A DNA stretch of 64,000 nt. Origin: Kingdonia uniflora (lineage: Eukaryota > Streptophyta > Magnoliopsida > Ranunculales > Circaeasteraceae). The position numbers and the translations under genes were made by a program. Below, one piece after another: positions 17,245 through 60,050 of this stretch. The notes under the pieces were generated by a model that saw nothing but the letters and a program-made list of their open reading frames with translations, had not been told where the DNA came from and did no database searches. The stretch is from the NCBI GenBank assembly GCA_014058105.1, contig JACGCM010001329.1:1054001-1118000 (forward strand). Reading direction: 5' to 3'. Position 1 is the first letter of the stretch, and every line of letters begins with the position of its first letter.

Positions 17245-17257
17245 CTATGCTGCTGCA

Positions 17258-22400: not shown

Positions 22401-22528
22401 TTCACATCAAAACCACAATATATGAACAACAATCACATAAATTTCAAAACCTCGTCCAAAACAGTTCTACAACCAATACAAAGGACAAAGTTCGATTAAG
22501 TCTCAAGATCTATACTACAACTACAGAA

Positions 22529-25495: not shown

Positions 25496-25913
25496 GGGTG
25501 ACCTACATAGTTCAAATATATCAACACTACGACCTACATATTTTTGACCTATGTCATCAGTGACTAGTTCGATATTTGTTCAATAGTGTCTTACAACAGT
25601 TCTAAAAGTAGCTTCAAGCACTTACAAGACAAGATAATGAAGTTCGAATTTATTATTCAAGGAAAACAAGTTACAAGAACGAATACTTCAACCAGTTCGG
25701 AGATAAAGATTACAAGTTCTACAAACAATTTTGTCTTTTACAAAAGATAGCCTACGTTGCAGATGACAGTGCAACACTTGAAAAGAAACAATGGAGGGCC
25801 CAACAGAAAAACTCAAAGCTCAAGGATGGAAATTGGAATGAAGGAGAGGACAAAATTAATCCCACCACTCCATAACCCCCACCTCCGCTTCCAACGACGG
25901 ACCTCCTCCACCA

Positions 25914-26243: not shown

Positions 26244-26312
26244 TGCTACTCAACCCAACCTAAAAGACTGACAACGTTAACCAGGGTGAACAGTGATAGC
26301 AACTATTCACCA

Positions 26313-26321
26313 TATTTTATA
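26313..26321 (-). promoter_or_regulatory. TATA box of AG1 (element B)
   Basis: TATAAAATA on the - strand, about 70 bp before the AG1 ATG. AG1 in E and in the left arm of C has a TATA box at a similar distance (about 80 bp). Confidence 0.55.
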
Positions 26322-26524
26322 CCAGTAACATTTAATGCACTCCACAACTTCCAATAAGGTATTCATCACAAGTACAGGTCTCAAGAAAAATTTCTGGGAA
26401 ACCCAACAGTCGAAAGTACTATTCTTTTAAGATAAAATGGAGGCCATCAATACAACATTCAATTTAGACGACTGGACTTCTCAACCAACACCACTCGCAA
26501 CGTACGTTTCTCCTGCTATTGGCT

Positions 26525-26537
26525 GAGAGGGGGCAGT
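26525..26537 (+). promoter_or_regulatory. Polypurine tract of element B
   Basis: gagagggggcagt ends directly at the 3' LTR. A purine run in this place primes plus-strand synthesis. Confidence 0.8.
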
Positions 26538-27294
26538 TGTGAGGGCTTATTTCTAATCCCCGTATTGAGTCCGATACTCGAACTCACATAACTCACTGAT
26601 AACCAATCAAGGACTAAAAGCAAGGGGATCGTAATACAGACTTCCTCATCTACAGCTCGGGGATGACAAAGCTCCCAATTACATCGCGCTACAGAAGATA
26701 CTCCTCCACTTATCAACAGTTCGAATACACGCGAACACTATTAGAGATCGCATCTTCATCAACAGTTCGGAGATATCAAAGCATCTTGTGACTTCACACT
26801 ACAGAAGATACTCCTCCACTTGTCAACAGATCGTATGCACGCGAGCATCACAGGAGATCGTATCTTCCCAACGATCGTTAGCTACATAGATCCGTTACAG
26901 ATCAACAAGTATCAGGACGTTACAAAAATCCACCATGAAGACTCATCAAAACCTGATATTGTAACGCCCATTATCAATGTAACCAACAGTCATATTATAA
27001 GACCTATAAATAAGACTAGATAGCTACAAATTAGGGGGGGGACTTCTCTGAGAACCTCTAGGAGATCATTTCTACATCTAAATATATATCTCTCTCTCTC
27101 TTTGTAATAGCTAGCAGTCTAAATATATATCTCTCTCTCTTTTTAAAATCCTCAGGAGAGGTCGTGGTTTTTAACCCATTCAAGGGTTTTCCACGCTAAA
27201 TCTAGTGTTGTTTGTTTCTTGTTCATAACTAAACATACTAGATTTCGAAGGTGTAAAACGCTATCTTCGTGCAATACGAAAATAGGCTATTACA
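26538..27294 (+). repeat. 3' LTR of element B
   Basis: Starts TGTGAGGGCTTATTTC, ends AGGCTATTACA (757 bp). TATA box at 27005-27012. It matches the 5' LTR with about 20 substitutions by eye. Confidence 0.93.
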
Positions 27295-27501
27295 ATCTGG
27301 GGTTCAAAGGTCTCGGCCTCCTGGCTGGATTTTTTGTCTTGACATGCCAAATAATGGCTGTAGAGAACCCCATTGCTGGAAATTGAGGCAAGATATCATT
27401 TTACCCTACGTGTGCGAACTGAGAAGCAAGTTGAGAGAGTGTGGATCATCTTCTTAGAGTGCGTGGTTTTTTTTTGAGGTCTCACTGATAACGGAGTGAG
27501 T
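27295..27501. repeat. 207-bp direct repeat, right copy, abutting the 3' LTR of element B
   Basis: Same length as the copy at 12071-12277; 6 differences seen. Downstream sequence (tgtcttcaaaaatttg) is unique, which puts the original target at ...ggtgagt/tgtcttc.... Confidence 0.92.
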
Positions 27502-38900: not shown

Positions 38901-41347
38901 AAATTTTGATTGTAGATATGGGAGTGCAAGAATTTACAAGAAAAAAAATATAATTTTAGGGGCAGAGCTAAGGTAAAGATCTGGCCTTGAAGACTGTAAT
39001 GAGAATTTATCTATTGAGTTGAATAAGAATGTAATGCTGTGTGTAGATGTTAATAACCCCCAATTACTCATTCATGGATGTGGTGTATTTATTTTGCAAA
39101 TGTGTATAGTCTAAAGAGAAGGATAAACTAAAAGAGATCAACGTCCTTTTGATATAACAGTTGGACATTCAATCAACTTCTACCAGCTACACCTGTGAGT
39201 TTACAAAACCTTCTATTGGATTGTGGCTGCATTATTTGTAACTCTGGTAACATTGTTCTTGTGCTACATATTTTAAACAGTTTGTTATCATCCCATTACA
39301 TCACCCTAAGCCAGGCCTAAACCTTAAACAGAAGTATGATGATGTATTGTCTGCATATGATGAAGTTAAGAAGAAGTTGACTGCAAAAGAAAATTTTGTA
39401 AGTCATTCAAAATGAATAAAATTAGTTGTAGTTAGTGAAGGGTTGTTTGTGTTTGATTATCGAACCATGGAATATCTTTTCATTTGGGTTTTATAGTAGT
39501 GACTTTATTTGAGTTTAATAATGTGCATGACTTTATTTTGTTTGTAAATTAGATGTTGTATTCAATTTGGAGTCCATGTTCAATACGGGGGAATGGTTAT
39601 GGTACAGATGAATTTCCATTTGGTATTGTCGGTTAACTCTTTTAATTGACAATTATAACTAAACTAATTGTCGATTTAGTACCCTCCCGACAATTAGTTT
39701 TGCTTACAGAGCACAGTATTGTCGAGGGATGCAGTAGTCGACAATAAATGACACTCATATCACCATTAACTGAACTGGATATATATAACTCATCTCCTTT
39801 ATGTCTTTGGAACAGATACTAAACTGGACATCCATCTCGTAAGCCCCCCCACCCCCATATTAATTTCATGGAATAAAATTAGTTGTAGTTAGTGAAGGGT
39901 TGTTTGTGTTTGATTATCGAACCATGGAATATCATTTAATTTGGGTTTTATAGTAGTAACTTTATTTAAGTTTAATAATGTGTATGACTTTATTTTTTTT
40001 GTAAATTAGATGTTGTATTCAATTTGGAGTCCCTGTTCAATATGGTGGAATGGTTATGGTACAAATGAATGTCCATTTGCTATTGTCGGTTAACTCCTTT
40101 AATCGACAATTATAACTAAACTAATTATCGATTTAGTACCCTCCCGACAATTAGTTTTGCTTACAGAGCACAATATTATTGGGGGATGCAGTAATTGACA
40201 ATAAATGGTAGTCATATCACCATTAACTGAACTGGATATATATAGCTCGTCTCCTTTATGTCTTTGGAACAAATACTGAACTGGACATCCATCTCGTAAG
40301 CCTCCCCCATATTAATTTCATGGAATGCTTATTTCACTATTTATCCTAATCTTGAAGTTTTTTTTTCAGCGTAAGGAGTTACTTAATGTTGAAAAGATGA
40401 AGAAAACTTTGGAAGCAGATAACAATGAATGGGTATGACCTATTCCTAACTCTTGTACCTATGTCACCCCATGTCATTATTGATAAACTTTCTTGATGCA
40501 CTTATTTATAAGGCTGTGATATCTAGTTATTGTTATTGCAGGAGGTTTGGCATCAGTCATTGTAGAAGACACTCGCGAATGAAGGGATGGAAGACATGGG
40601 GGACCCAATCTTTGAAGAATTTTTTGACCAGAACGAAAGATTATTCACAATAGCACAGCAGGGGCCCAAGAAAAATTATCATGAAGACTTGATCTCCACG
40701 GGGCTAACTCTTAAAAATGTCATCATTGCTAGGAGAGAGCTGAAAATGTCATCATTGATAGGAGGGAGAATATGTCTAAAAAGAAGAAGTTATAAGAAGT
40801 TTTATTCTAACCGTGGGCAAACTATCTTCTAGATGTTTGTGGCGTCGACGTGGATGATAACAATTCTTGTTTTAGGGTTCTGGCAACGATTCAACATAGA
40901 TTCCAGGATGTAATAAAAATGTTGAAGTCCTTCACCACTAAAGACCCCGTATTTTGGAAGAGTGTCTCCACTCAGACATTAGTTGTACGATTCAGTCTAG
41001 CCGGTGAGAAGGTGTATGAATCTTTGTTGTGGGCATTTTTATTTGGTCATTAGTATGTTGAGTATAGGCATATGGGGCATTTACTATCCACTTGCTATGA
41101 GAAGGTTGTGGTCTTCATTAGCCACACTGAAGCTTATACAGTCTTACCCCTTTTTTGGGCAAAGAAGAAAATCTCATTGTCGATAGAGGAGAGGTTCCAG
41201 AACCTTCTTATGGATACTAGTAAGTACTGGTGGTTTGGTTTGGGGATGGACAAACACTATGTTCGTTTGTTTCCAAGGTTTGATGCACCAATTCTTCCAG
41301 TTTCCACTATTTTCTTCGATCATGCAAAATTAGATATTCTTATGTGA
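35920..41347 (+). pseudogene. Transposon-type gene with plant mobile domain (PMD), degenerate, multi-exon
   Basis: The PMD core is readable at 36823-37167: VIFVACAYMLYILGSFLFPS, then ARYLNLFANDK and HMYHNIGATSRDDGRQF, ending before a GTAATT donor. The C-terminal PMD block lies at about 37690-37820: VVWDPYRDKRDTAHAFKDI, YFYGALASLDNVQPYYSNR. PMD occurs in DNA transposons, retrotransposons and the host MAIN/MAIL proteins. Downstream, short exons with Lys/Glu-rich sequence (38250-40440) look like a coiled coil. A last block at 40850-41347 (EAYTVLPLFWAKK, HYVRLFPRFDAPI) is unassigned. Stops in the PMD (for example within NRVVQ/FSRIQ) show it is dead. The flanking CGACAAT-type repeats suggest a DNA transposon, but no terminal inverted repeat was found. 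Confidence 0.6.
39414..40328. repeat. 457-bp tandem duplication within the PMD region
   Basis: gaataaaattagttgtagtt begins copies at 39414 and 39871. Both copies run through a block with three ATTGTCG/CGACAAT words to ...catattaatttcatggaat. They differ by a few percent. Confidence 0.88.
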
Positions 41348-42400: not shown

Positions 42401-42742
42401 TCATCCCCCCTTCTTAAGATCAGTCTTCGCTCGTCCTTTGGTTTGAACCACGAAAGAGTTTAAAATGATAGTTCCTGATATCCTATAATCTGGTAAAGAA
42501 GTTGAGATGTCTGGTTGCAATGTATCTATCTGTGTTAAAGACTTATCCCAGTGGTCAAGGTAAGACTCTATCTCGTCTAGCTTCAAAACCACAAAATTAA
42601 AACTTTCTTTAATCTTCGAGGCCCTTTTGAATAACTTTGATGCACAAAGGGATAGATGGCTATGCCGTAAGGGATGTCATAAGTTCTTTGCTGTCAAGTG
42701 AGTCTCATCATACGACCTTGAGAACTTGCTTGCACCAATCTT
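42401..42742 (-). pseudogene. C-terminal fragment of the FAR1-related (FRS) gene, beyond the element C insertion
   Basis: On the - strand this piece resumes the SWIM-domain frame of the larger FRS block across element C: ...DAFITIRC then KIGASKFSRSYDETHL. It ends with SFVVQTKGRAKTDLKKGG and a stop, like the (V)-x-T-K-G-R-P-K tail common in FRS proteins. An in-frame TGA after AKNL shows further decay. The join is precise if one copy of the AATCT target duplication is removed. Confidence 0.75.
42738..42742. repeat. Target-site duplication of element C, left copy (AATCT)
   Basis: AATCT directly before TGTAGGGG. The right copy is at 55937-55941, directly after CCCCTATA. Confidence 0.85.
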
Positions 42743-43476
42743 GTAGGGGCCTAACTTCTTTCTGAGGGGAAGTCGACTCTTACAACACGGGGTTAATCTT
42801 CAATCAAAAGGAATGCAAGTAAATAATTTAAAGTATATGCAATCTATAGACAAATTACTTGCGTAGAGGCTCGAATGTGACTCTCTACGACCTCTGATGA
42901 GGATTTTTAAGTATGCTGTTATTACTAATGAGTAATCGAAGGTTCGAGTACTGGGCTTTACAGGGTGGTCGAAGGTAAACTACAAAGGGGCTGGAGAGGA
43001 TTTTTCTAACCTTTTCTTGGTTCCCCATCTCTCCTATTTATAGAACATAGAAAGAGCTGAGTCACCAAGGTTAGGCCAAATTACAAGGCTACTATCCGGA
43101 TATCCCGGCGGGGGTATGAGCGCTGGACATGTTTGCACTGTTACTATAACAGTTGTTGAAGATGTCTATGTACTTTGGTACTGTGGCAGTGGTTGGGCCT
43201 GTCACTATAGCTGCAAGGACTAACCACTGCGCCGTCTTGTCTGATGAGCTGGCTGCCTGTCCTATCATATTTTGACCATGTGCAAATATGGTCGAATGGT
43301 TTCCGCTGCGATGTGTGTAGATCGTCCTCGAGGCTTGTTAGAGTCAAAGCTTTGTCTTCAGGGGATCTCTGGAGGACTTGTTTTAAGGATTGAATGGGCT
43401 TCGATATATTCGGGTAGGCTGCGAAGTAGCCTTCGAGTATCTGAGTGGGGTCGAAGGTTGCGAGTAGGCTACTACA
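42743..43476 (-). repeat. Left LTR of element C (inverted relative to the right LTR)
   Basis: On the + strand it runs TGTAGGGG ... GGCTACTACA (734 bp), the reverse complement of the right LTR (55200-55936). Its outer end is the U5 end. A related solo LTR is at 59313-60050. Just inside lies ttTGCCCCCTCTCAACG, the complement of the polypurine tract. Confidence 0.88.
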
Positions 43477-43490
43477 TTTGCCCCCTCTCA
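43477..43490 (-). promoter_or_regulatory. Polypurine tract of the left arm (inverted)
   Basis: On the - strand gagagggggcaaa lies next to the LTR's U3 end, the same relation as on the right side at 55188-55199. Confidence 0.65.
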
Positions 43491-43641
43491 ACGAGGGTCT
43501 TAAGGCCTGGTGGTGAGGCATTCGCTGAGAAAATTGTTTGGCCCTAGAATTCGAGTGGTTTGACTGTTGGTTTTCGGGTAAGTAATAAAATAGGGTAATT
43601 AAGAAGTATTGGTGGTCATAGGGCAATAAATGAAATGAGGC

Positions 43642-43649
43642 TATAAGTA
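43642..43649 (+). promoter_or_regulatory. TATA box of AG1, left arm of element C
   Basis: TATAAGTA, 81 bp before the AG1 ATG at 43730. Confidence 0.45.
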
Positions 43650-43729
43650 TGGGTTATTGGGTAGGGATACTGTGCAGCCTTCTTATTTCCCATTCTTCAC
43701 TCTTTCCTCTACAAAATTTTGAAAACTCT

Positions 43730-44068
43730 ATGGATACCACGCCCAACACGCGATATTAGAAGAGGATGGGGTTCGCCCGAGACCGTCGCGTAGGGTGGAA
43801 GACTAGTGAACTGCATATAAAGTTCTTTGGGCATCATGATCTGGACTGGGACATGCCCAAACTGGTAGAGGTAGAGGTTGGAGTGCTCATCAACGGGGAG
43901 CCTTTTGCCTATCTTTGGGACCGACTGAAGTACGACTTTACTACTGCAGAGTAGCGTTATCTCTTTCTGTCGGCTTTGGCCGAATGTCTTGTTTGTGCGG
44001 AAGAGGAGATGGAGGAGAAAAGTACGGTGAGTGGAGCTGGGCCTTCTGGAAGTAGGGCTACTATTTGA
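43730..44068 (+). pseudogene. Small antisense protein AG1, left arm of element C
   Basis: ATG at 43730 (MDTTPNTRY) opens a 112-codon frame with two TAG stops, one where the right arm has a CAG codon and one after DFTTAE. Content: GFARDRR, HIKFFGHHDLDWDMP, EVGVLINGEPFAYLWDRLKYD, RYLFLSALAECLVCAEEEME. The right-arm copy at 54608-54946 is the same length but has a different stop (TGG to TAG after YAYL). AG1 of B and E are distant homologues. Function unknown. Confidence 0.62.
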
Positions 44069-44559
44069 GGTGGTGATGATTGGTCTTTCTGTATTATGAG
44101 GTTTTACGTAAAGGTTTTTATTTGTTTTCGAAATTTTGTTGCTTTTTAAATTAGATAATGGAATGGAAGCATTATTTTCTGAAACTTTGTGTGACTATGT
44201 CTAGTTGATGTTATAGATGAATACTCTCATAGGCGCGCTTAGCATATGCATGTCATCGAATTGTTAATAGTGGGTAAAAAATGGTATCGAAGCATAATGG
44301 TATGATCGAAGGTTATAGACTTTGTTATTGGTTAAAACTTGGTACAAGGAATTGGGGTCGAAGTGTGAAGATGGTCGAACGTTCGATGCTGGAGGTTTGC
44401 TCAACGATAAGTCCTCGGGAATGAGGTTTAAATTTAGGTACTGATGAATCAGTTACGTCTAGGAAGCTGGAAAGTCATGACTGTTAAATTTTTAAGGTGG
44501 GAATTGAAGGTAGCAATTAAGTCGGCTTGGGGGAGGGAAAGTTGAAATCGTTCTTCAAG

Positions 44560-44567
44560 TATAAAAG
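44560..44567 (+). promoter_or_regulatory. TATA box of AG2, left arm of element C
   Basis: TATAAAAG, 74 bp before the ATG at 44641. This promoter segment is missing from the right arm. Confidence 0.5.
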
Positions 44568-44640
44568 GAACTATGGTGGAGGGGATTTCTCATCATTCTG
44601 CATTCTGTCTTCATCTTTCTTCTTATTTGCTCGGATCAGA

Positions 44641-44860
44641 ATGACAGCATATTCCCCCACACAAGAGAACCAGGCGATAGTGAGAATCAGGCAAATACAG
44701 GAGAAGAAGTTGGAGCTACAACGGAGGTTTGGGATTAATCAGGATATTGATGCGAAAATACCGAACCTCTTTGAAGTAGAACCCGGGGCACCCATTGCCG
44801 GTATGTCTTTTGCATACTGGTGGGGAATTCTTCAGATGATGGATCCATTTCTGGGGCACC
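44641..44860 (+). pseudogene. Small antisense protein AG2, left arm of element C, cut at the internal junction
   Basis: ATG at 44641 (MTAYSPTQENQ) leads through QEKKLELQRRFGINQDIDAK, LFEVEPGAPIAGMSFAYWWG to MMDPFLG. After about 44857 homology to the right arm stops and gag sequence begins. The RRFG...D-D-A and FAYWW pattern resembles AG1 (KFFG...DLDWD, FAYLW), so AG1 and AG2 look like ancient duplicates. The E element has a likely AG2 at 60491. Confidence 0.55.
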
Positions 44861-45883
44861 CTCAAAGAGATGCTCTCAAAAGTCAACGGTTATATTGACC
44901 TCGAACGCCTCCGCGAGTCACATAAATCGAGCAATCCTTCGACCCCAGCTATCAACAAACCTCGACAAAACCCACCTGCTACTCCAACAACCCTGATCAC
45001 TCCCGTCTCACAGGTGACGGAGAGCCGCAAATGCCCTAACACCGACAGCAGTGCTGAAGCTCACAAGAAGCGACCGAGGCCAGTTTTACCGACACTCACC
45101 GCCCCTTTCAGTACCCTTCTACCACATATACATGCAGACCCTATCTGGCGCATCCCTTTCCCTATCGAAGTGAGACCAGGCAAACCTTATTGCGCCAATC
45201 ACATATGTAACTGTCATCATACCAATAATTGTTTCGCCCTCCAGCGCTCTCTCGAACTCATCCTCAAAGAAGGTCGTCTACACCAATATATTGTCAGCCT
45301 TCCCAGCTACCTTGACGGGTCTTACCTCCAACCTCAATCCACCCCTACTGCTGACCCGGCCATGGTACATATCTACAGATTATGCTTTATCGATGTCAAC
45401 AACATAGACAGCGGTTGTTCCAAAAGTAAATGTAAGTGCGTCGAAGAATGTTGCAAACTCACCTATCCGGAGAAACTTCTTACCCTCCTGCCAAAATCAA
45501 GCCCTCACCCTCGATTCGAAGGCATTTCATTCATCAAATGTGATACATCTCACGTCCCTTTTCTCCATTCCAATTCCCTAGTCATTATTATTAAGATCAA
45601 GAACCTCATCCTTCACACAATGCTCTTAGACACAGGGAGCGTAGCTGATGTCCTTTTTCTCCCAACTTTCAAAACCATGAAGAAAAATGACTTCATAATT
45701 GCTGCCAATGTCGAATTGAAGGGCTTCAATGGGGCCACAGAGGTCGATGTTGGCCGAATTAATCTACCAGTTACCACAAGCCCCATTACACTACAAACCA
45801 GCTTTCTGTCATTGATAAGAAGTCAGAATACCTCGGTATCCTCAGGCGTGACTGGCTCCACGCCATGCATGCCATACCTTTGA
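44857..45883 (+). pseudogene. Gag C-terminus, zinc knuckle-like segment and protease of element C
   Basis: The frame starts in gag at TLKEMLSKVNGYIDLERL, matching B's gag end (TLEEMMEKVNNFIDLERL); the gag domain before it is absent. It continues through a basic linker (KKRPRP), YCANHICNCHHTNNC, and the retropepsin site MLLDTGSVADVLF. An open stretch of 337 codons runs to 45883, where a frameshift enters the protease C-terminus. Without the gag domain no particle could be made. Confidence 0.8.
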
Positions 45884-46040
45884 CCTACCACCAGACCCTC
45901 GTTTTACCACTCCCGAAGGTACTTGGAACTTGAAAGGCTCCCAGCGCCTCGCCCGTTCATGCGAGCACCCAGAGATCGATCAGACCCATAAACTCGTAAG
46001 CCGGCCATAGAAATCACTGTATCTTTCTATCCCTACACCT

Positions 46041-46760
46041 TTGACAGATACCACCTCACCCATCGAACCCACCATTTATATCGAACTCGGCGGTCCTGGT
46101 CGAGCTACATTCATTGGAACTTTTCTAGATAAGGCAGAATGCTTCGAGCTTACAGACTTCCTTCGAACAAACAAATATGTCTTTGTATGGACATTCCAGG
46201 AGATACCCGGTGTCGACCCCATCTTGGCGTGCCATTGCCTCAACCTCATTCCCTATTCCTCAACAATAAAACAGAAGAAGCATAACCTGGCACCGCGACT
46301 CTGAGAAGTAGTGAACCTTGAAGTGGACAAGCTCATAGCCGCAGGGTTTATCAGAGAAGTGAAGTACGCTGACTTGATATCAAACATTATGGCAGTTCCC
46401 AAGATGAACGACAAGATAAGAATCTGCGTCGACTTCACAGACCTCAAAAAACACACACCAAAGGGCAGCTTCCCCCTCCCGATCATCTCAATACTCCTCG
46501 ACGCTACTGCTGGATATGAGCGACTATCCATGATGGACGCAGCTTCGGGTTACAATCAGGTACCCCTACTCCCTGAAGATCATCTTAAAACTTCATTTAT
46601 CACTGAACAAGGCCTTTACTGTTTCAATGTTATGGCCTTCGGCCTTCAAAATATGGGAGCCACTTACCAACGCCTTGTCACAATCATGTTTAAACCCTTG
46701 CTTGGCAAGTCGGTCGAGGTTTACGTCGATGACATGTTATGCAAGAGCCTCAAGAAATAG
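46041..46760 (+). pseudogene. Reverse transcriptase of element C
   Basis: Motifs: FIREVKYADLISNIMAVPK, ICVDFTDLKKHTPKGSF, MMDAASGYNQVPLLPED, VMAFGLQNMGATYQRL and catalytic VYVDDML. A TGA at 46302-46304 splits the N-terminal part from the core, and TAG at 46758 precedes the connection. The copy is more diverged from A/B than those are from each other. Confidence 0.85.
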
Positions 46761-46811
46761 ACCCATATCCAAGACCTAGCCAAAGTATTCTCAATACTTC
46801 GTACATATAAC

Positions 46812-47456
46812 ATGAAATTCAGCTCAAAAAAATGTCAATTTGGCATTTTGTTTGGTAAATTTTTGGGCTACCTTATCAGTAAACGAGGTATCAAGATTGA
46901 CCCCACCCATATTCGAGCCCTCATCGATATGCCTTCGCCCCGAACCAAAAAAGATGTTCAAAAAGTGGCTGGTAAAATAGCAGTCCTCAACCGTTTCATT
47001 TCTAAATCCTCAGATAGATGTGCTTGGTTGTTTTCCCTCTTACGCGACCAAGGCGTCTGCAAAGTTTAAAAGAAAAACAACCCTGAAATCAACTGGACAC
47101 CCGAGTGTGAACAAACCTTCCTCAAACTCAAAAATTATCTTGGCCGACCACTCATTATAAGCAGACCTATCGAAGGCAAAACACTCTCTTTGTACCTTGC
47201 TGTCATAGACACTTTTGTCAGTTCAGTGCTTATTCGACTCGACTCAAACGTCGAAAAGCCCATATATTTTATTAACAAAACCCTGACACTTGTAGAAACT
47301 CGATATTCGAAACTTAAGCGTTTGTTCCTTACCCTTATCTATTCAGCCTGCAAACTCAAACCATATTTTTTAGCCCACCCCATCTGTGTTATAACAAGTT
47401 ACCCCCTTCGAGAAGTACTCAGCAAAAATGAGAAATCCAGACGAGTACAACAGTGA
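46812..47456 (+). pseudogene. RT thumb/connection and retroviral-type RNase H of element C
   Basis: Blocks 46812-47069 and 47190-47456: FLGYLISKRGIKIDPTHIRA, MPSPRTKKDVQKVAGKIAVL, FISKSSDRCAWLF, then YLAVIDTFVSSVLIRLD and FINKTLTLVETRYSKL. A TAA at 47067-47069 and a TGA near 47454 interrupt the frame. Confidence 0.8.
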
Positions 47457-47459
47457 TCT

Positions 47460-47945
47460 GCGTACCTTGACGAACATGACATTATAGTCGAGAAACAAAT
47501 ATCTCAGAAAGGCCAAGCAGTAGCAGACTTCCTCGCCGACTTCCCGGTCAAAGATGTCGATTGGGAAGAACATGAAGATGACTTAACAGAGGACCAACCC
47601 GAAGCAACAGATCCCTGGAACCCCAATACTGGCTGGTGTTTATTCACAGATGGATCCGTTGAACCTAATGGCTCAAAAATTGGTATTGTCTTGGTCGCAC
47701 CCACTAATGATCAAATAGAGAAAGCCCTCAAACTTACCTTCGAATGTTCCAATAACGAAGCAGAGTACGACACCTTGATCCATGGCCTCGACCTCGCTCT
47801 CAACCTCGGCATTCCCAAACTTACCATTTTCACAGATTCCCAACTTATTTAAGGACATTACATAGGAGAAAATCAAGCTCATGGTCGCATGGCTGACTAT
47901 GCTCTTTTCGTTAGACAGCGCATGGATCGTTTTCCTTAAAAATCT
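47460..47945 (+). pseudogene. Archaeal-type RNase H of element C
   Basis: LFTDGSVEPNGSKIGIVLVA, CSNNEAEYDTLIHGLDLAL and IFTDSQLI mark the second RNase H of Tat elements; a stop (TAA at about 47850) follows. The N of TNNxAEY is kept, T is S. Acidic linker (about 47560-47610) precedes it as in A and B. Confidence 0.75.
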
Positions 47946-47984
47946 ACTATCACTCATTATCCTCAAGGAGAAAACCAACATGCA

Positions 47985-49382
47985 GATGCCCTCACCTATA
48001 TCGCAGCCATGCTCGGACAGTCAGAATCCCCGACCCTTCATATCGAAGTACTCGAATGCCCAAGTATCGACCTGATGGAAGTCAATGCCATCAATATTGG
48101 GGGCAAGAGTCTCGATCCAGAAGACTGGCGCACACCATTCCTCCATTACCTCAACAAGGCTACCCTCCAAGATGATCCCAAAGCCAGACGATCCTTGTTA
48201 GAAAATTACCGCAGATACATTATCTACAAACATGAATTACATCGCAAATCCCCAAATGGCGTCCTCCTTTGATGCATATTCCAAGCTGAAGCTTCTACAA
48301 TTTTAGCCGAACTTCATGAAGGAACCTGTGGTGCTCACACTGCTGGTCGTTCTATGTCTCTTTGAGTCGTCTCTCAAGGATTATTTTGGCCGAATATAAA
48401 AAAATAAGCTGAAGAGTATGCCAAGCACTGTGACAAATGCCAACATCATGCTCATGACATTCATTTCCCTTTTCAAGACCTCCATTTTAGTCAAGTTTCC
48501 TGGCCCTTCAAAAGATGGGCTATCGATCTCATCGGCCCCTTCCCTAAAGTATCGGGTAACAGAGAAAACGTTCTTGTTGCAACAAATTACTTCACCAAAT
48601 GGGTTGAAGCTATACCTTTGTGCCGAACTATAGAAGCAGAAGTTATCAAGTTTTTATGGGAAAATATCATCACACGCTTCCGTTTCCCCCATATGATTCG
48701 ATACGGCAATGGTCCCCAGTTCGTCGGCAACAAAGTCAGAAACTTTCTCATAAACACAACATCGTCCTCTCACCCTCAACACCTTATTATCCCCAAGGAA
48801 ACGGTCAAGTCAAAGCGATCAACAAAACCATTGTGGATGGTCTCAAGAAAAGAGTCGACGCGAAGTAAGGTTGATGGTTTTAAGAGTTACAGCACGCCCT
48901 TTGGGCCTATCGAACAACCCCAAGAAAATCTACAGGCTACACCCCTTTCCTCCTAGCATATGGTACCGAAGTTGTGCTCCCTACTCAATTCAAAGTACCT
49001 ACACGAGATCCTAACCTCCCAGATGAAGACAATGAGTTTAAGCTCGCATGCAATATGTTACAAATCGACGAAACCAGAGACTGAGCCATCGCCAATCTTG
49101 GCCGGTACCATACATCACTTTAGAAATCCTATAACAAGAGAGTTTGACCACGAAGTTTCAACATCAGAGATCTAGTACTTCGACGAATCAATCAATCCTC
49201 AAAACCTCGAAATGCCGGCAAGCTAGCCTAATCCTGGGAAGGACCTTATGTCGTGTACGATAAAGCTGACAAAGATTCTTACTATTTGATGACGGAAAAC
49301 GAGGAGCCTTTACCAAACCCGTTGAACACAATACAACTGGTTTTCTATAACAGGCCACGACCTCAACCTTGTACAACTGATG
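47985..49382 (+). pseudogene. Integrase of element C
   Basis: Pieces 48009-48272, 48418-48956 and 48960-49382 show LHEGTCGAHTAGRS (zinc-binding His), CDKCQHHAH, FKRWAIDLIGPFP (first Asp), [10 protein letters not shown] (second Asp position altered: RYGNGPQ instead of R-x-DNGPQ) and [13 protein letters not shown] (usual Glu changed to Lys). Two of the three catalytic positions therefore look mutated, in addition to frameshifts. Confidence 0.78.
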
Positions 49383-49439
49383 TAACACATAATTATGAAT
49401 AAGAAACTTTTCAGCCCATACTTCATCTCCTCTTTTAAT

Positions 49440-50210
49440 TAAATTTCTTGGTTTAACTTAGGTATCATGTCAACCCTTCGACCCGACTGATACTTAGGAG
49501 CGACCTAGAGATTTTTGAAGCTTCCAATTTTGAGCAAACTCGGGGGGCAAGGATGGTTGACAGATCGGACCCTCGAGGATGCATTGGGGGCGAACAGTTA
49601 TGCTTTGATCAGGCTCTGAAACCGTCGAAGTCTAGTCGATTTCCTGGTTTCTTTTAAGTAACATGTCAACCCTTCGACCTGACTGATGCTTAGGAGCGAC
49701 CTAGAGATTTTTCAAGCTTCCAAATTCGAGCAAACTCGGGGGGCAAGGATGGTTGAAATACTAGACCCTTGGGGATGCATTGGGGGCGAGCAGTTATGCT
49801 TCGATTAGGATCTGAAGCCGTCGAAGCCCAGTCGATTTCCTGGTTTCTTCTAAGTATCATGTCAACCCTTCAACCCGACTGATACTTGGGGGCGACCTTG
49901 AAATTTTCAAGCTTCCAAATTCGAGCAAACTCAGGGGGCAAGGATGGTCGAAAGACTGGACCCTCGGGGATGCATTGGGGGTGAACATTTATGCTTCGAT
50001 CAGGCTCTAAAATCGCCAAAGTTCAGTCGATTTCCTGGTTTCTTCTAAGTATCATGTCGACCCTTCGACCCGACTGTTACTTGGGGGCGACCTTGAAATT
50101 TCAAGCTTCCAAATTCGAGCAAACTCGGGGGGCATGGATGGTCGAAAGTCCTGACCCTCGGGGATGCATTGGGGACGACCACATCTTACATCGCTGTGGC
50201 TTCGGCCTTC
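49440..50210. repeat. Tandem array, about 196-bp unit, 4 copies (element C)
   Basis: atgtcaacccttcgacc recurs at about 49471, 49667, 49863 and 50058 (spacing 195-196 bp). Each unit also holds gatgcattgggggcga. It occupies the same place after pol as the 135/146-bp arrays of A/B but is unrelated in sequence. Confidence 0.92.
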
Positions 50211-50690
50211 GATGTCCAGCAGATCCTTCAAACTCAAAAATTATATCACAATACCCTCAAAGCTCTTAAGGGTTCGATTGCAGTCATTACACGCAGATAC
50301 TATTGTACAAGAATACTTACAATTCTATTAAGTCCAAAGAAGTTTCAAAACCTCATATGTCAGAGAAACAATTGTATTACAACTTAAGCTAAGTCATCAA
50401 AAGTTCAATTCAAGCCAAGCCAACAGAATGCGCATCAATATTTCAGCAATCCAGAATAAAGCAAGGCCCAAACAAGACAATAAATTTAGCTCAGAACATC
50501 AGACATCAATTTAAAAGCAGTTCAGAATCAACTTCAGAAGTTCCACAGATAACTACCATCAATGCAGTACAACAGCTCAAAGACATACCAAGTTCAAAGA
50601 CTAATGCAAATAAATAAATAAACATGGATCAAAATATTACAACTCAATAACAAATCAGAAAAGGAAGGCATGGAACCTCACTACCAAATA
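50211..50690. other. 3' non-coding region of element C
   Basis: A-rich on the + strand, between the tandem array and the AG3 stop. Would hold the AG3 3' untranslated region. No ORF recognised. Confidence 0.5.
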
Positions 50691-50692
50691 CT

Positions 50693-52860
50693 TCATATCG
50701 GCGCGGTTGCAACTCTTTCCTCTACAGGTCCCCCAGTGCCAGCACCCTCAGCACCTTCAGTCGAAGGCTTCGACCCCGCGCCATTGACAACCACACCATC
50801 CACAGTTCCACCACTAGCCGCTCCAATAACTGAAGCCCCCATACCACCTCCAGTACCTCTAACTGCCCCATCAACAACACTTACCTCTCCTTTCCCCATC
50901 TGTAAATCATCTCCAGCAACAAGTTCTGGGGAAACAGGGAAGGGTTCCAAAATATCGGGGTCATACCCCTTATCTTCTATAAACACCTTCAACCTGACAG
51001 TCACCTTATATTATCATCAAACTGCCGCTAGTAACTCACCTTCTGTTATGCCTTTTCCCTCTCTTTTACCGCAAGCTTTGCCGACCACTCCCGCTCCTGC
51101 CTTGATCGCTGAAGCCCGAGCCTCTCATCAGACGAGTCTGTAATCATCGCTAGATCTCGCTTCAACTTCTTGACTTCAATTAATAATGACGCCTCAGTAC
51201 CCCGAGCAAGATCCTGACTTTCTACTGCTTGTCGCAACTTCCATTTTACTGACTTCATTACCTTGTTGTAAGATTGTGTCCAAGCATCCGTCTGCTAGAA
51301 TATTCAAGCAGTCAGTACCCCTCGAAACTTGTAGAACCTAAAAGAAATTTCAGACTCTCACAAAAGAAATTTATAGATAGTTACCTAAAACATAGTCCAC
51401 TTTATTTCCTTCGAAGCCTCGTCTGGGTCGTCCTCGCAGAGCTCAACCATCGAAGCATGTTTGGCCACTGCTTGCTCCTGTTGTTCAGCCTCTGTCATCT
51501 CTTCATCCTCATTTGCTGCATTATCTTCTCCCAGTGCCCTGCGCCTTTTGCGCTGAATAACCTTCATCTGTTGCACCTTCAAAACTTTGGGAACAACCCG
51601 GCCCTTCCCCTTCTCAGCCTGTATTGGAACCTGCCTCGGTCTCAGTCTCGAAGCATCGCAGGCCACTTTGGGAACTTGCACTACTTGCTTCGACCCCCTC
51701 CACTTTTTTGGAGCATACTAAAAATTTCTTGGCAACTCTTCCCCTCCCATTTCTTCTGGACCCTTCGAATAACCTTCGCCTCCCCTTCTATTCGATGGCT
51801 TCGGCATAACGGGTACATTTCGAGGTAGGGAATCCATCTTTTTCCTCCTCTGCCTCTTGATGCCAAGAATGTCAAAAACAGAATTTACCCAATCCTCACT
51901 AGCTTCGAGCATGGTATTGATATAGTTTCTCAGATTGTTCCAAGGCAGATTCTTCGGACCTGCAGAATAAATAAAATATAATTACCACTTATTCAAGACA
52001 TACATCAACAACAATCCTTCGACAACAAACTTACTCTGATTATACACCCTATGATGGAACTTATAAAGGTCCTCCCACTCAACATTCTCGTAGTTACCCA
52101 GTACTATCAATAAATCTTTATTCCACCCTCGACCTGTCGAGCACAGGTCAAAGAACCAGAGATTCTTTACGCGACACTGGCTCACCTTCTTCGAGTAGAA
52201 GGTAATAATATCAAACCACTTAATCAAACCCCTACCCTCACTGCTTAACTTCGCATTCATGCCTTCAATTACCCTCATCATCTCACAAAATTTTCCATTC
52301 ATTTGTTCCGGAGCTACCTCCCAAAAATTTAACACCTCTTTTACCAGCCTTCGAAGAGGAAGTTCCATCTCCAGTCGAATCTGGCCTCTATATGCCATTA
52401 TTCAATCTTCAGGGTTTGATTTGAAAGTTAACCTTGCACCCGCCACACTCATTAACACCCCCATCATCGACAGCTCCAGCTTGGTAGCAAATTGATCTAT
52501 TATAACCTTATCTCTAGTTAAAATGATACCTTCGACCCTATCCGACTCAGTCGAATTCCCACTTTCATCACTTTGCCCCCCTTCTCCCTTTCCAACACCA
52601 GAGGGCCCCATATTACCCTCGCCTCTCTCCCCTCACACTACCTCCTCTTTCTCACTATCTTCAGTAACTACTGTCCTACAACGTCTCATAATCAGAAGCT
52701 CACCAGTGGGCAATACCATAGACAAAGGGGCATCGGTTAAAATATCTAACACTTCTAAGTCGTTGCCCTCATCCATTAGGGCACGACCTGAAATACTAGC
52801 CTCGAATGCTTCGATTTCTTCATCTATTAGCCTCTGTCTCGAAGCTTGACGGGTATGCAT
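50693..52860 (-). pseudogene. Antisense multi-exon gene AG3 of element C (stops present)
   Basis: ATG at 52860 (MHTRQASRQRLIDEEIEAF) follows a tgtagggtaag acceptor. Blocks: 52860-52402, 52398-51982, 51912-51385, 51258-51046, 51004-50693. The conserved core is FWEVAPEQMNGKF, EMMRVIEGMNAKL, ILxFYSKKV-like, NLWFFDLCSTGRGWNKDL and KFHHRVYNQSK, after which an intron (GTAAGT ... CTGCAG, about 80 bp) falls at the same place as in B and E. Exon 2 is basic (VIQRKRRRAL) with acidic runs. The C-terminal part is a coiled coil ending FIEDKGYDPDILEPFP and a Gly/Val-rich tail. Stops between blocks 1 and 2 and elsewhere. Function unknown. Confidence 0.66.
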
Positions 52861-53286
52861 CTTACCCTACAGAAGAAGAGGCACGCAATTAGATCAATAT
52901 ATTCGATAATTTCATGTCAATAACTCATAGCCCATCTACCCCCTTGAACTGATTTATGTGCATTCGACATTCGACCCTAAACTAAAGACTCCTTCAAAAA
53001 CCCCCAAAATCCTAGAATGGATCGAAACCTTGATTCATAAATTCTCTTATCTTCGACGATAACCTCCAAATCCCGAACCCAGAAGATGCTACTCCCAGAC
53101 ACATAAGGGAAAACAAAACAACATTTGCAGAGCTCAAATGACATACCTGTGAGAGAAGCACTATACTTAAAGCAGCGAGATCAATGCATCAATTCCAGCA
53201 CCGGCAGTAATGGTGTACATTCTTCTTCTCTCACTGTTTCTCTAGTTTTTTCTCAGTGAATAGTATAGTGGTTACTTCTCTCACAC

Positions 53287-53294
53287 TTATATAC
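53287..53294 (-). promoter_or_regulatory. TATA box of AG3 (element C)
   Basis: TATATAAG on the - strand, followed by a leader of about 140 bp, a CAG/GTATGT donor (about 53140) and a leader intron ending just before the ATG at 52860. Confidence 0.55.
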
Positions 53295-53299
53295 CCTCT

Positions 53300-54200
53300 C
53301 AGAAAACCAAAACCGCCTTAATTTTTAAACCATTATTATTTCCACGACCCCACTACCCCGGGTTTTCGGCTGCAATGTGTTTTGACCAATTTACCCCATA
53401 TATCTCTCACATGCGAGTTGCACGCTCACTTCAAATTACCTACAAAACTAAAGCTTCTCGAACCCTTTTTCCCTCACTCGAAGTTAAACAGTCAAATCTC
53501 AACATCCAATCAAACTTTTCCGTAAAAACGAGCAAAAATCATGATTACTTTTTGGCACACTGCCCCAGGCGCACGTGCCATCCTAATAGACCGGCTGTCT
53601 GGGCTATCAGTACGAGCAGTCAAATGAAACAAAACCTTCGACACACTCCTTATATTCGAGTAATCAACTATACAACGTCTCGAAGACTTGTCAATAGACA
53701 ACCTCATATTCGACCCCCAAGTATACCAACCATTCGATCTACGACATATTTGACACTTCCAAAATTTATTGCATTGACAGATAACCTTCCCACTTCAACA
53801 GACTACAGCTTTTTACTTCGACAATTCAAGATTTTTCTTCGATAACCCAAACACTCTACTTCGATGGCTATACTATTAATTCGACAGCTCATGATACTAC
53901 TTCGAGAACATAGAATCCTCTTTTGACAGATTTTACATTGCAATGACAGTAGTCCAAAATTCTAATTTCATTCAACAAGAAAATACATCCAGTCTTCAAC
54001 TACAGACCCCATATACAAAAAAAAATGAGGAAAGAAAGAGCAACAACAAAAATAAGCAACACACAGATCAATCAAAGAGCCCAACAATACAATTGAACGA
54101 GGACCCTAATTATTGACGGGATGCTCTTCTTCAACCGCGGGCACAATACTAGCATCCTCCTGGTCCACTATTTATTCCGTGAAGGACTCCATCAGAGACA
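53300..54200. other. Spacer between AG3 and AG2 in element C
   Basis: Non-coding, rich in short ttcga/tcgaa words. An open stretch at 53375-53845 (+) has no recognised homology and low-complexity content; I do not call it a gene. Confidence 0.45.
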
Positions 54201-54345
54201 ACCGATGACCCAGAAATGGGCCCATCATCTAAAGAATTCCCCACCAGTATGCAAAAGACATTCCGACAATGGGAGCCCCGGGTTCCACTTCAAAGAGGTT
54301 TGGAATTTTTGCATCAATATCCTGATCAATCCCAAACCTCTGTTG
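54200..54345 (-). pseudogene. AG2 remnant in the right arm of element C (5' half deleted)
   Basis: On the - strand: RFGIDQDIDAKIPNLFEVEP, APIVGMSFAYWWGIL. About 390 bp present in the left arm (44317-44707: TATA box, ATG and first AG2 codons) are missing here, so the deletion joins the AG1 3' flank directly to AG2 codon 25 or so. Confidence 0.65.
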
Positions 54346-54607
54346 TAACTCTAACGTCTATAACCTTCGATCATACCATTATACTTCGATACCATTTTTT
54401 ACCCACTGTTAACAATTGGATGACATGCATGTGCTAAGCGCGCCTATGAGAGTATTCGTCTATAATATCAACCAGTCACAGTTACACAATGTTTCAGAAA
54501 ATATTGCTTCCATTCCATTATCCAATTTACAAAACAGAGATATTTTGAAAACAAATAAAAACCTCTACATAAAACCTCAGAATATAGAGAGACCAATCAT
54601 CACCACC

Positions 54608-54946
54608 TCAAACAGCAGCCCTACTTTCAGAAGGCCCAACTCTACTCGCTGCACTTTGCTCCTCCATCTCCTCTTCCGCACAAACAAGACATTCGGCCAA
54701 AGCCGACAGAAAGAGATATCGCTTCTCCGCAGTAGTAAAGTCATACTTCAGTTGGTCCTAAAGATAGGCATAAGGTTCCCCATTGATGAGCTCTCCAGCC
54801 CCTACCTCCACCAGTTCGGGCATGTCCCAGTCCAGATCATAATGCCCGAAGAACTTTATATGTAGTTCACCAGTCTTCTGCTCTATGCGACGGTCCCGAG
54901 CAAACCCCATCCTCTTCTGATATCGCGTGTTGGGCGTGGTATCCAT
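54608..54946 (-). pseudogene. Small antisense protein AG1, right arm of element C
   Basis: ATG at 54946 (MDTTPNTRYQKRMGFARD), 112 codons with one TAG stop after INGEPYAYL (a Trp codon in the left arm). Stop TGA at 54608-54610. AG1 faces away from the adjacent 3' LTR, with a TATA-like TATAAGTA about 80 bp upstream as on the left. Confidence 0.65.
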
Positions 54947-55187
54947 AGATTTATCAAAAATTTATAGAGGAAAGAGTCAAGAATGGGAAAGAAGAAGGTT
55001 ACATAGTATCCCTACCCAATAAGCCATACTTATAGCCTCATTTCATTTATTACCCTATAACCACCAATACCTCTTAATTACCCTCTTTTATTACTTACCC
55101 ACAAACCAACAGTCAAACCACTCAAATTCTAAGGCCAAACAGTTTTCTCAGCGATCGCCTCACCACCTGGCTTCGAGACCCTCGCTA

Positions 55188-55199
55188 AGAGGGGGCGAA
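55188..55199 (+). promoter_or_regulatory. Polypurine tract, right end of element C
   Basis: agagggggcgaa directly before the right LTR. Confidence 0.75.
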
Positions 55200-55936
55200 T
55201 ATAATAGCCTACTCGCAGCCTTCGACCCCACTCAGACACTCGAAGGCTACTTCGCAGCCTACCAAAATATATCAAAGCCCATTCAATCCTCAAAACAAGC
55301 CCTCCAGAGATCCCTTGAAGATGAAGCTTCGACTCTAACAAGCCTCGAGGGTGATCCACACACATCACAGCGGAAACTCTTCGACCATATTTGTACATGA
55401 TCGAAATATGATGGGACAGGTAGCCAACTCATCAGACAAGACGGCGCAGTGGTTGGTCCTTGCAGCTATAGTAATAGGCTTAACCACTGCCTCAGTACCT
55501 AAGTATAGAGACATCTCCAACAATTATTACAATGGGCGGTACAGATATGTCCGGCGCCCATATCCTCATCGGAGTATCCAGACAGTACCCTTGTAATCTG
55601 ACCTAACCTTGGTGACTCAACTCTTTCTATGTTCTATAAATGGGAAAGATGTGGAACCAAGAGAAGGTTAAAAAAATCATCTCCATCCCCTTTGCAGTTT
55701 ACCTTCGGGCACCCTGTAAAACCCATTACTCGAGCCTTCGATTACCCCTCAATAATAAAAATATACATTTAAAATCCTCATCAGAGGTCGTAGAGAGTCA
55801 CATTCGGGCCTCTACGCAAGTAATTTGTCTATAGATTGCACATACTTTAGATTATTTACTTGCATTTCTTTTGATTGAAGATTAACCCCGTGTTCTAAGA
55901 GTTGTCTTCCCCTCTGAAAGAAGTTTGTCCCCTATA
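55200..55936 (+). repeat. Right (3') LTR of element C
   Basis: TATAATAGCCTACTCGCAG ... CCCCTATA, 737 bp. The inverted left LTR has TGTAGTAGCC ... CCCCTACA, so both ends here show G-to-A or C-to-T changes. AATCT follows at 55937. Confidence 0.88.
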
Positions 55937-57735
55937 AATCTTACACCTTATCGTAATGAAAGCATCAGCTATTTTGAGAATGTCATATTTCGAGAAAACC
56001 TTTATGGGGTGGCAACACAAGAGTCCAATATGCTCAAACAACTTATATCCACAATTACCAGTTAGCTTTTTTAAGTCTATATTTAGCTCGAATGACTGGG
56101 TACGACCACTATGGGACTTCTCCGTAAGTTATCAGAGGCTGCCTTCTACGTTTCTTTTTATTGCAACGAAGTGGACGACCTGGTCAAACTGATCCTCAAG
56201 TTTATGAAATATTGTTCTTGTGCATATCTTTGCAGCATCTTTGAGTAGTACTTGATGAGGATCAACTTGACGATATTTGTGTTCTGACACAAAGTCTTCT
56301 CCACTTTCCTTATCATATACTTTTAAAAGGGGAGCCTCGTACTTGGTGACAAAACTGTACAATCCAGTTATTATTGACAACCAACCATTAAAGAAGTTGT
56401 TTGTGGACTTACTCCTTGTAGTGCTCATGCCCGCAAAGAAGGTTAACCTATTCCATAACGGTATCCATCTATGTCTAATATTGAAGATGCATTACATCCA
56501 AAGGTTACCATCCAATTTATGTTTCTTCATTAGTTTCATCCACCTAGTTTCAAAAAGCATGGGCTCATATGTGTTGTGCATTATCAAATCATTATCTTCT
56601 TTGAATATAGATGGGTCTGAATAAACATGGCCAATTTTCTCAGGGAATTTGTTTGTGATGTACCATAGACACAATCGATGTATGGTGTTGGGGAAGACTT
56701 GTAAATAAACTAGAACTTATAATTAATGGGGAAATTGGATATTAGTTAATATTCTCGATCACAAGCCAAAGTCGACAAAAGCATGCCGACACCTGCTCGT
56801 AATCGAACATATAATGTCAACTAAGATGGTAAATATACACTATATCTAACATGTCAAATTCGAACTACTTCTTTACCTTGGGCACAATGGCGGCCATAGC
56901 TGCATCTTGATCAGTGATATTTAAAACACGGTGTTTGTAGTTCATTGCCTTGAGCCAAGTATGAAAGAACCATACAAATATTTTTTTTTGTTCATTTCTT
57001 AGTAGAGTACATCAGTATTGAATCCTTTGGTAGTGGTTGTTGATCCTTGCAAAACGGAGCAAATAGCATCTTGTAAACATTGGTTCGGTACATAGTATCG
57101 AAAGTGATGACATCCCTAAATGTCTTGTATGCGCACCTTGAACGTCTATTGATCCAAAAAAATTGAGTGCTCCGTTCCTCATCCAATTTTTTATCAAAAT
57201 AAAACATCAGATCTTCATTTTGCTTATTCCTAAACCACTCCAATGCAACTTGTACATCTCCTTTGGATAGTCGTTCCTTATTTACTTTAGTGTTGTGGTT
57301 GTAATAATCCCATTTGTTAAATTTTTTATCTCAGAATAATGCCGGCACCTTACTCACCGAAATATTGTAGAGTTCAAATGTCGTTGTTAGAATTTTTGCT
57401 GCTTCTAGAAAAAATTTGTTAACCTTCATACGATAATGATTATGAGGAGATATAAGTTTATGATTATGGATATCCATGAAACTTGTGACAACATACTCGC
57501 CTATTTTGGTATTCCAATTAATGTTCATTGCTATTTTACACCTACACTTATCAGATGATCTTTTGTTTCCATCTATTTTGCTTATCTCTGGATCTATCCC
57601 AAGGTTTTTCTTTGAAAAGTCATTGCTCATACAACTGAAGTGGGCTCTGCCTATATCCTTAGATCTTGGACGTTTAGTAGAATTGCGTATCTTGGTGAAG
57701 AAACCATGCCCTCCTCCATAACATTCGTACCACAT
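55937..57735 (-). pseudogene. FAR1-RELATED SEQUENCE (FRS) gene, N-terminal and transposase-like part, broken
   Basis: FRS/FHY3/FAR1 proteins are transcription factors derived from MULE transposases. The - strand from 57735 shows the FAR1 DNA-binding region (CRCKIAMNINWNTKIGEYVV, DIHNHKL), then GDVQVALEWFRNKQNEDLMF, DVITFDTMYRTNVYKMLFAPF (first catalytic-type Asp), ITDQDAAM in a shifted frame, a likely intron (about 56870-56690), HRLCLWYITNKFPEKIGH, IRHRWIPLWNRLTFFAGM, FVSEHKYRQVD and the SWIM-like NCGYKLFEHIGLLCCHPIKVF. A TGA after KVPALF, a frameshift near 57030 and a stop after NVEGSL break it, and element C then cuts it inside the SWIM region. Confidence 0.82.
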
Positions 57736-59312: not shown

Positions 59313-60050
59313 TATAGGGGTCAAGTTTCGTATGAGAGGAAATCGACTCTTACAGCAAGGGGTTTATCTTTGACTAGGGGTTTGTAAGCATATAAATAAC
59401 AATAATAAGAGATACTACTGAGATAATACACTTGCGTAGAAGCCTATAATAGGTTACTCCACGACTTCTAGTGAGGATTTTAAGGAGAAATGATATATAT
59501 TGAGTTAGTTAAGGGATCGAGGAGTAGATTTTTACAGGGTATTCGAAGGTAATCTTGTAAGGCTTAGCAGGAAAGATTTTCTAATCCCTTCATAGTGCCT
59601 CCTTCCTCCAATTTATAGGATATAGAAAGGGTTGAGTCGGAATGGGAGGCTAAGTTACATGTATACTCCTTGGGGATAACTGACTTGTAGCCAGAGTCGG
59701 TTATGACACTATAGCTGTTGGTTATGTCACTGTAGTTCTTGGTCTGGTACTGTAGCTATCGAGTGGCTTATTTCACTATTCTGTCTGGTGAGCTGGCTGT
59801 CAGACGTGCCTGCCTTCAACCCTGTACGTCCATGGTCAAAGTATTTTTGGTCTTGAAGCTGAGTTCTGGCGCTGCTCATCTATCTTCGACTGCGACAGTT
59901 AGCCTCGCTGATTCCTTTAAGTATTTAATTAGTCTCGGAAGGCTTCATGGACTTAGTTACTGTATTATTAGGCCTCGAGTCTTTAGGTAGGCTTCGATGT
60001 AGCCTTCGATCATTTGACTAGTGCAAGAAGGCTGCGAGTAGGCTACTACA
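59313..60050 (-). repeat. Solo LTR of the element C family, with TAGAA target duplication
   Basis: On the + strand TATAGGGGTCAAG ... GCGAGTAGGCTACTACA, 738 bp, matching the C LTRs end to end. TAGAA lies directly on each side (59308-59312 and 60051-60055). No internal sequence remains, as expected after LTR-LTR recombination. Confidence 0.88.

What the first reader, a model, noticed from the sequence alone, without database searches (positions are those of the whole stretch)
42738..55941. A retrotransposon with inverted LTRs that appears to have integrated as one unit
Seen directly: the left LTR (42743-43476) is the reverse complement of the right LTR (55200-55936); both outer termini are the U5 end; AATCT flanks both outer edges; and the FRS reading frame (...DAFITIRC / KIGASKF...) can be followed across the site once one AATCT is removed. 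Known: gypsy LTRs are direct repeats with a U3 end on the left, and integrase leaves a 5-bp target duplication. Inference: a cDNA with two U5 ends and an inverted 3' arm was made and inserted by integrase. Nesting or a later inversion would not leave matched target repeats at two U5 ends.
Basis: partly seen in the sequence, partly recalled or inferred. Interest (0 to 1): 0.88.

Follow-up and report, generated by a model that had tools for sequence, protein, structure and literature searches.

The report
Inverted-ended retrotransposon inserted as one unit
In a wild herb's genome, a mobile element sits in a gene with both of its outer ends being the same (tail) end of the element, as if two copies joined front to front were inserted in one step; a second such case in the same genome suggests that it is not a one-off.

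Summary
Confirmed. Window 42742-55936 is a Ty3/gypsy element whose two LTRs point outwards; both outer termini are U5 ends, flanked by AATCT. It interrupts a FAR1-related (FRS) gene; joining the flanks at one AATCT gives a frame that aligns without a gap through the site in 9 of 10 aligned Kingdonia uniflora relatives. The left arm is the inverted last 2.1 kb; the rest runs forward from inside gag to the 3' LTR, without a 5' LTR and about 1.2 kb. The inner junction (44858/44859, 1-nt overlap) is in none of the 39 other scored genome hits. The arms differ by 11-14%, at or above five ordinary LTR pairs (5-12%), and share 18 derived changes (about 4 expected), so a common parent is favoured, though tree support is weak. 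Best reading: two 5'-incomplete cDNAs were joined head to head and inserted by integrase through two U5 ends; whether joining came before or during integration is open. A partial census (173 of 1175 sites seen) gave a second U5-U5 unit, contig C235, with TSD GCTCT and a different inner join, which speaks against later inversion or nesting. New variant of known complex LTR insertions.

The parts
42737..42741 (.). left target-site duplication AATCT
   Evidence: sequence
42742..43476 (-). left LTR (a 3' LTR read on the minus strand); outer terminus 42742 is the U5 end
43477..43489 (-). polypurine tract next to left U3 (GAGAGGGGGCAAA on the minus strand)
43477..44858 (-). rest of inverted left arm: 3' non-LTR region, including 381 nt (44324-44704) absent from the right arm
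44858..44859 (.). inner junction: antisense 3' region meets sense gag, 1-nt overlap (A)
   Evidence: none of the 39 other scored genome hits spans it
44859..45880 (+). gag C-terminal part/protease region, open frame from 44861 (no Pfam hit); homologous to the gag region of longer copies, which carry about 1.2 kb more plus a 5' LTR upstream
46305..47066 (+). reverse transcriptase (PF00078; first part above the cut-off, second part below it), broken by a stop
47070..47849 (+). RNase H domains (PF17919/PF17917, then PF13456/PF00075)
48408..48953 (+). integrase core (PF00665 rve, just above its cut-off)
49443..50181 (+). 195-nt tandem repeats between pol and the 3' region
54206..55199 (+). right arm, 3' non-LTR region ending in polypurine tract (to 55199)
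55200..55936 (+). right LTR (3' LTR); outer terminus 55936 is the U5 end
55937..55941 (.). right target-site duplication AATCT
   Evidence: sequence
42401..42741 (-). FRS (FAR1-related) gene, downstream part of the interrupted frame (has a stop of its own)
55942..56491 (-). FRS gene, upstream part of the interrupted frame (has stops of its own)

Best explanation
Two reverse transcripts of one source element (or near-identical sources), each complete at its 3' LTR (U5) end but incomplete at its 5' side (one only about 2.1 kb long, one reaching into gag), were joined head to head at their 5' sides, essentially end to end. The element's integrase inserted the pair with its two U5 termini into AATCT of an FRS gene, leaving the normal 5-bp duplication. 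Shown: anatomy, termini, target duplication, continuous host frame at the site, an inner junction found in no other scored hit, shared derived changes. Inferred: joining by end-joining, and that it came before integration or as the closing of a two-donor integration. The locus then decayed (11-14% arm divergence, 381-nt loss in the right arm).
For: Exact U5 termini and AATCT on both sides; host protein aligns without gap at the site in 9 of 10 aligned relatives. Inner junction touches no LTR end and has a 1-nt overlap; none of the 39 other scored hits spans it. Arm divergence K2P .139 in the LTR and .113-.115 outside, against .052-.119 in five LTR pairs taken as ordinary. Arms share 18 derived changes at 1550 clear-majority sites, 13 of them absent from all 13 other subfamily copies, about 3.8 expected by chance without rate variation; second of 105 pairs by normalised sharing; spread over 54376-55902. 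Outside the LTR both arms carry equal private changes, 35 and 34. Second locus C235:73134-84266: outer U5 ends with GCTCT/GCTCT, left LTR-b lacking about 28 nt of U3 joined to the intact U3 start of LTR-c, no GCTCT at that join.
Against: The tree joins the arms only weakly (47/92; sister in 94 of 200 resamplings). A whole-arm tree, probably with the right arm misaligned at its deletion, placed them apart, and the LTR-only tree does not join them. Against all 28 other copies only 4 sites are shared by the two arms alone. The LTR has unequal private changes, 23 left and 42 right, and K2P .139 lies above all five other pairs. No reads, no empty allele. The join alone cannot tell end-joining from a reverse-transcriptase switch.
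Confidence: 0.6

Rival explanations
1. Reverse-transcription switch or fold-back: a nascent minus-strand cDNA switched onto another (or its own) minus strand, copied it back to its U5 end, and the resulting palindromic-ended cDNA was integrated.
For: Gives the same final anatomy with arms identical at birth; shared derived changes and the 1-nt overlap are compatible; template switching in plant LTR elements has been argued from complexes with TSDs (PMC1950507).
Against: Needs a way to make the second strand across the whole product; C235 joins an intact U3 terminus to a slightly shortened LTR, which looks like joining of finished cDNA ends.
Confidence: 0.22
2. Two independent insertions in opposite orientation at the very same 5-bp target, followed by a deletion of about 10 kb or more that fused them.
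For: Would also leave AATCT on both outer edges.
Against: Needs a second hit on the same 5 bp and a deletion that removes every trace; arms share derived changes. In C235 the repeat that this route would leave between the units is absent, unless a deletion took it too.
Confidence: 0.07
3. An ordinary insertion rearranged later (inversion, copying of its 3' end to its left end).
For: Arms are old and diverged, so there was time.
Against: The left breakpoint would have to fall exactly between AATCT and a U5 terminus with no homology seen to guide it; it would have to happen twice (C235).
Confidence: 0.06
4. Assembly or read artefact.
For: Palindromic reads are a known source of false inverted repeats (recalled).
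Against: Arms differ by 11-14%, mostly transitions (148 transitions to 48 transversions) with two single-base gaps plus one 381-nt loss; similarity stops at the LTR ends and the flanks are two halves of one gene.
Confidence: 0.03

Closest known systems
Template-switching complex LTR retrotransposon insertions (Sabot and Schulman 2007, PMC1950507; main text read)
   Same: Abnormal composite of two element copies, inserted in one step with a 5-bp TSD
   Different: Those have three LTRs in the same orientation and U3/U5 outer termini; here two LTRs face outwards and both outer termini are U5
Two-donor concerted integration by retroviral integrase in vitro (recalled, no call)
   Same: Two LTR ends of different molecules serve as the two ends of one integration event
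   Different: Recalled as a test-tube product; here a genomic insertion with the far ends joined
Palindromic or inverted unintegrated retroviral DNAs (recalled, no call)
   Same: Inverted LTRs at both ends of one DNA
   Different: Not recalled as integrated units with target duplications
DIRS elements, whose LTRs are inverted (recalled)
   Same: Inverted terminal repeats on a retroelement
   Different: Here rve-type integrase and a 5-bp TSD; in the seven other contigs with nearby pairs of LTR hits both LTRs lie on one strand

Membership tests
Ty3/gypsy LTR retrotransposon | RT - RNase H - integrase order | tested here: met
   Pfam hits in that order
Ty3/gypsy LTR retrotransposon | 5-bp target-site duplication | tested here: met
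   AATCT here; AACAA and GATCC at the two relatives checked
Ty3/gypsy LTR retrotransposon | two direct LTRs with U3 at the left outer end | tested here: not met
   LTRs inverted, both outer ends U5; in seven other contigs with nearby pairs of LTR hits both lie on one strand
Tat-type lineage of Ty3/gypsy (traits recalled) | second RNase H and antisense frames between pol and 3' LTR | tested here: inconclusive
   two RNase H-type regions, antisense frames and tandem repeats; no phylogeny made
Template-switching complex (PMC1950507) | flanking TSD around the whole composite | tested here: met
Template-switching complex (PMC1950507) | third, internal LTR shared in direct orientation, two complete core sequences | tested here: not met
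   no internal LTR in the window element; C235 has internal LTRs but also an inverted half
DIRS-type inverted-LTR element | tyrosine recombinase instead of integrase, no TSD | tested here: not met
   rve integrase found, no recombinase among the 9 frames scanned; TSD present

The most novel reading that the evidence does not exclude
In this plant, LTR retrotransposons recurrently integrate through two U5 ends: incomplete or complete cDNAs are joined head to head and inserted as inverted units. This is a minor integration route that keeps producing loci able to yield hairpin RNA and so to start silencing of their own family.
Probability: 0.35. Interest if true: 0.78.

Novelty: new variant of a known kind. 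Interest (0 to 1): 0.6.

Why it matters
If right, integrase of a plant LTR element can use two U5 ends in a living genome, so that incomplete cDNAs can still be inserted. It adds an inverted class to the known direct complexes. Inverted LTR units are natural candidates for hairpin RNA that starts silencing of a family: an Arabidopsis EVD study looked in short reads for LTR pairs in opposite orientation, found none, said that the library insert size limited the search, and found one antisense nested insertion instead (PMC11624286, passages read). An LTR search that demands direct repeats would pass over such units, so their number in genomes is unknown.

Tried and rejected
C158 (PPT-U3 sites 1064459 minus and 1086203 plus, 21.7 kb apart) was checked as a further case: outer flanks GATTT and GTTTT (read by eye) differ in one letter, so it is not counted. 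I first took C235 for two ordinary small elements because of an internal LTR, then saw the matched GCTCT and the LTR-b/LTR-c join, and reversed that. A first arm alignment misplaced the 381-nt gap; a tree on an alignment made the same way was replaced by one on arms split at the deletion. A smaller sample gave higher support for the arms as sisters (87/92) than the larger one (47/92). Sites shared by the two arms alone fell from 9 (13 and 14 other copies) to 4 (28 others). LTR-only sharing is uninformative: 1 site for the window arms, 0-10 in six ordinary pairs. A right-LTR query, a DNA-level empty site, a longer PPT pattern and the head-to-head U3 junction pattern did not complete.

Paper searches: on the structure and on the plant (open-licence PMC papers only). 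By the titles and abstracts listed, none is on an inverted U5-U5 LTR insertion with TSD; this is no proof of absence from print. PMC8786324 (passages) says that locust Gypsy-25 has an inverted pair of LTRs, which I did not check. PMC12312487 (passages) concerns head-to-head DNA transposons and was not used.
Full report
Setting. The window is C1115:1054001-1118000 of a 1.003-Gb assembly in 2693 contigs. The 36 protein hits of the interrupted FRS gene are all named Kingdonia uniflora, and two contig lengths listed there (2781057, 6215404) equal those of C643 and C1293 of this genome. So the genome is very probably that species, a member of the Ranunculales.

Anatomy. The element spans 42742-55936. 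Left LTR 42742-43476 and right LTR 55200-55936 are inverted. Each has its polypurine tract and U3 start on the inner side, so both outer ends are U5 ends. The left arm is the inverted 3' end of the element: LTR plus 1.38 kb, to 44858. From 44859 the sequence runs forward through the gag C-terminal part, reverse transcriptase, RNase H and integrase, tandem repeats and the 3' region to the right LTR. Longer copies show what is missing: in L043 the 5' LTR match ends at 747 and the gag match starts at 1967, so a 5' LTR and about 1.2 kb are absent. The right arm lacks 381 nt held by the left arm; 27 of 28 relatives span that stretch whole (L064 with a gap of about 60 nt) and L074 spans most of it, so the loss is private.

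Target site. AATCT stands at both outer edges. Joined at one AATCT, the FRS frame continues, and 9 of 10 aligned Kingdonia relatives run through the site without a gap. Nothing of the gene was lost at the site and only five bases were doubled, as in the two ordinary insertions checked (AACAA at C850, GATCC at C2674).

Inner junction. In a longer copy (L043) gag reads ...CAAA|CCCTCGAAGAG, and the antisense 3' region (L030) reads ...GGGTCA|TCG; the window reads ...GGGGCA|CCCTCAAAGAG. The overlap is one base. A 401-base query over the junction gave 40 scored hits: the window itself in full, and 39 that match only the gag part. As far as that capped search reaches, the unit has not multiplied as such.

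Were the arms born together? LTR K2P between arms is .139, and .115 and .113 in two further stretches. Five LTR pairs taken as 5'/3' ends of ordinary elements gave .052.100.106.115 and .119 (the .100 pair at C2025 comes from a more complex locus). With 13 other subfamily copies, the arms share 18 derived changes at 1550 clear-majority sites against about 3.8 expected without rate variation, second of 105 pairs by normalised sharing. Thirteen of the 18 occur in none of the 13 copies, and the 18 are spread over the arm; with 28 other copies, some from outside the subfamily, 4 sites remain that only the two arms share. Private changes are 58 left and 76 right: equal outside the LTR (35, 34), unequal in it (23, 42). 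The best tree joins the arms but with weak support (47/92; 94 of 200 resamplings, next best 32); an LTR-only tree and a tree on a probably flawed alignment do not. I read this as a common parent and one birth, favoured but not proved. At a recalled rate of 1.3e-8 per site and year the insertion would be about 4-5 million years old.

A second case. The 21-base PPT-U3 edge occurs 1175 times (604 + 571, control 0); 100 places were listed. Its A variant occurs 240 times, 100 listed, 27 of them already in the first list. So 173 distinct places of 1175 were seen, and the second list shows pairs of the variant only. By eye, one outward-facing pair lay under 13 kb: C235, 74001 (-) and 83512 (+), in a related element (LTRs about 75-77% like the window's over their alignable part). 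Its outer LTR ends are U5 ends at 73134 and 84266, flanked by GCTCT on both sides. Inside are an inverted unit (LTR-a, body, LTR-b) and a forward tandem (LTR-c, body, LTR-d, body, LTR-e). LTR-b lacks about 28 nt of its U3 end and meets the intact TGTAGTAG start of LTR-c. There is no GCTCT at that join, as a second hit on the same target would leave, and after LTR-e the GCTCT follows at once, so the forward unit is not nested in LTR-b. The ten LTR pairs of that locus differ by K2P .081-.114 over about 500 bases, the two outer ones least, so they do not by themselves date the parts. One further pair at 21.7 kb (C158) had flanks that differ in one letter. Among the 40 best 3'-region hits only the window's own two face outwards within 15 kb. 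The window's right LTR departs from the 21-mer, so this census would miss such units.

Mechanism. Both loci fit one rule: two cDNAs, each with a U5 end free, joined at their 5' sides. In the window two truncated cDNAs are joined; in C235 two nearly finished ones. The window's join involves no LTR end; the C235 join has an intact U3 end on one side. The simplest single account is end-joining of cDNA 5' sides with insertion through two U5 ends (inferred). A strand switch in reverse transcription explains the window as well, C235 less well. Independent double insertion, later inversion and artefact are unlikely for the reasons given under the rivals.

Compared with what is known. Sabot and Schulman (PMC1950507) describe direct three-LTR complexes with TSDs and propose template switching between R regions. 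The present unit shares the single TSD and the composite make-up but not the orientation. Two-donor integration and palindromic retroviral DNA are recalled from the retrovirus field, not looked up. By listed titles and abstracts, nine paper searches on the structure gave no inverted U5-U5 insertion with TSD.

Noticed in passing
window 12071-27501: A plus-strand LTR element (12278-27294, LTR K2P .030) is flanked not by a 5-bp repeat (TGAGT / ATCTG) but by about 207-bp direct repeats that abut its LTR ends and have the same divergence (.030): it looks like a 207-bp target-site duplication.
   Followed up: partly
window 1-10624: A second copy of that family lies head to head with it on the minus strand (5' LTR about 9864-10624), arms 85-88% alike, running off the window start.
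   Followed up: partly
window 59333-59667: Stretch 68% like the left LTR (42763-43093) in the same orientation: remnant of a related LTR beyond the FRS gene.
   Followed up: no
window about 43730-43957 and 44641-44857: Two small antisense reading frames in the 3' region (the first broken by stops; both translated by hand) share a motif (VEVEVGVLINGEPFAYLWDRL / FEVEPGAPIAGMSFAYWWGIL), apparently paralogues; TATAAAAG lies ahead of the second, which has no Pfam hit.
   Followed up: no
L012 (C2025:16640-18620): An LTR with a polypurine tract upstream and a primer-binding-like site downstream, i.e. a middle LTR, with another LTR about 1.1 kb away: perhaps a direct three-LTR complex.
   Followed up: no
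C235:76853-84266 (L089, L086): Forward half of the second U5-U5 unit is itself a tandem with three LTRs; their U3 holds short tandem units.
   Followed up: partly
window 42401-56491, FRS gene: 36 FRS-like Kingdonia proteins related to this one were listed, many near 70% identical: an expanded FAR1-related family.
   Followed up: no
window 39414-40326: Tandem duplication of about 460 bp, 93% alike.
   Followed up: no
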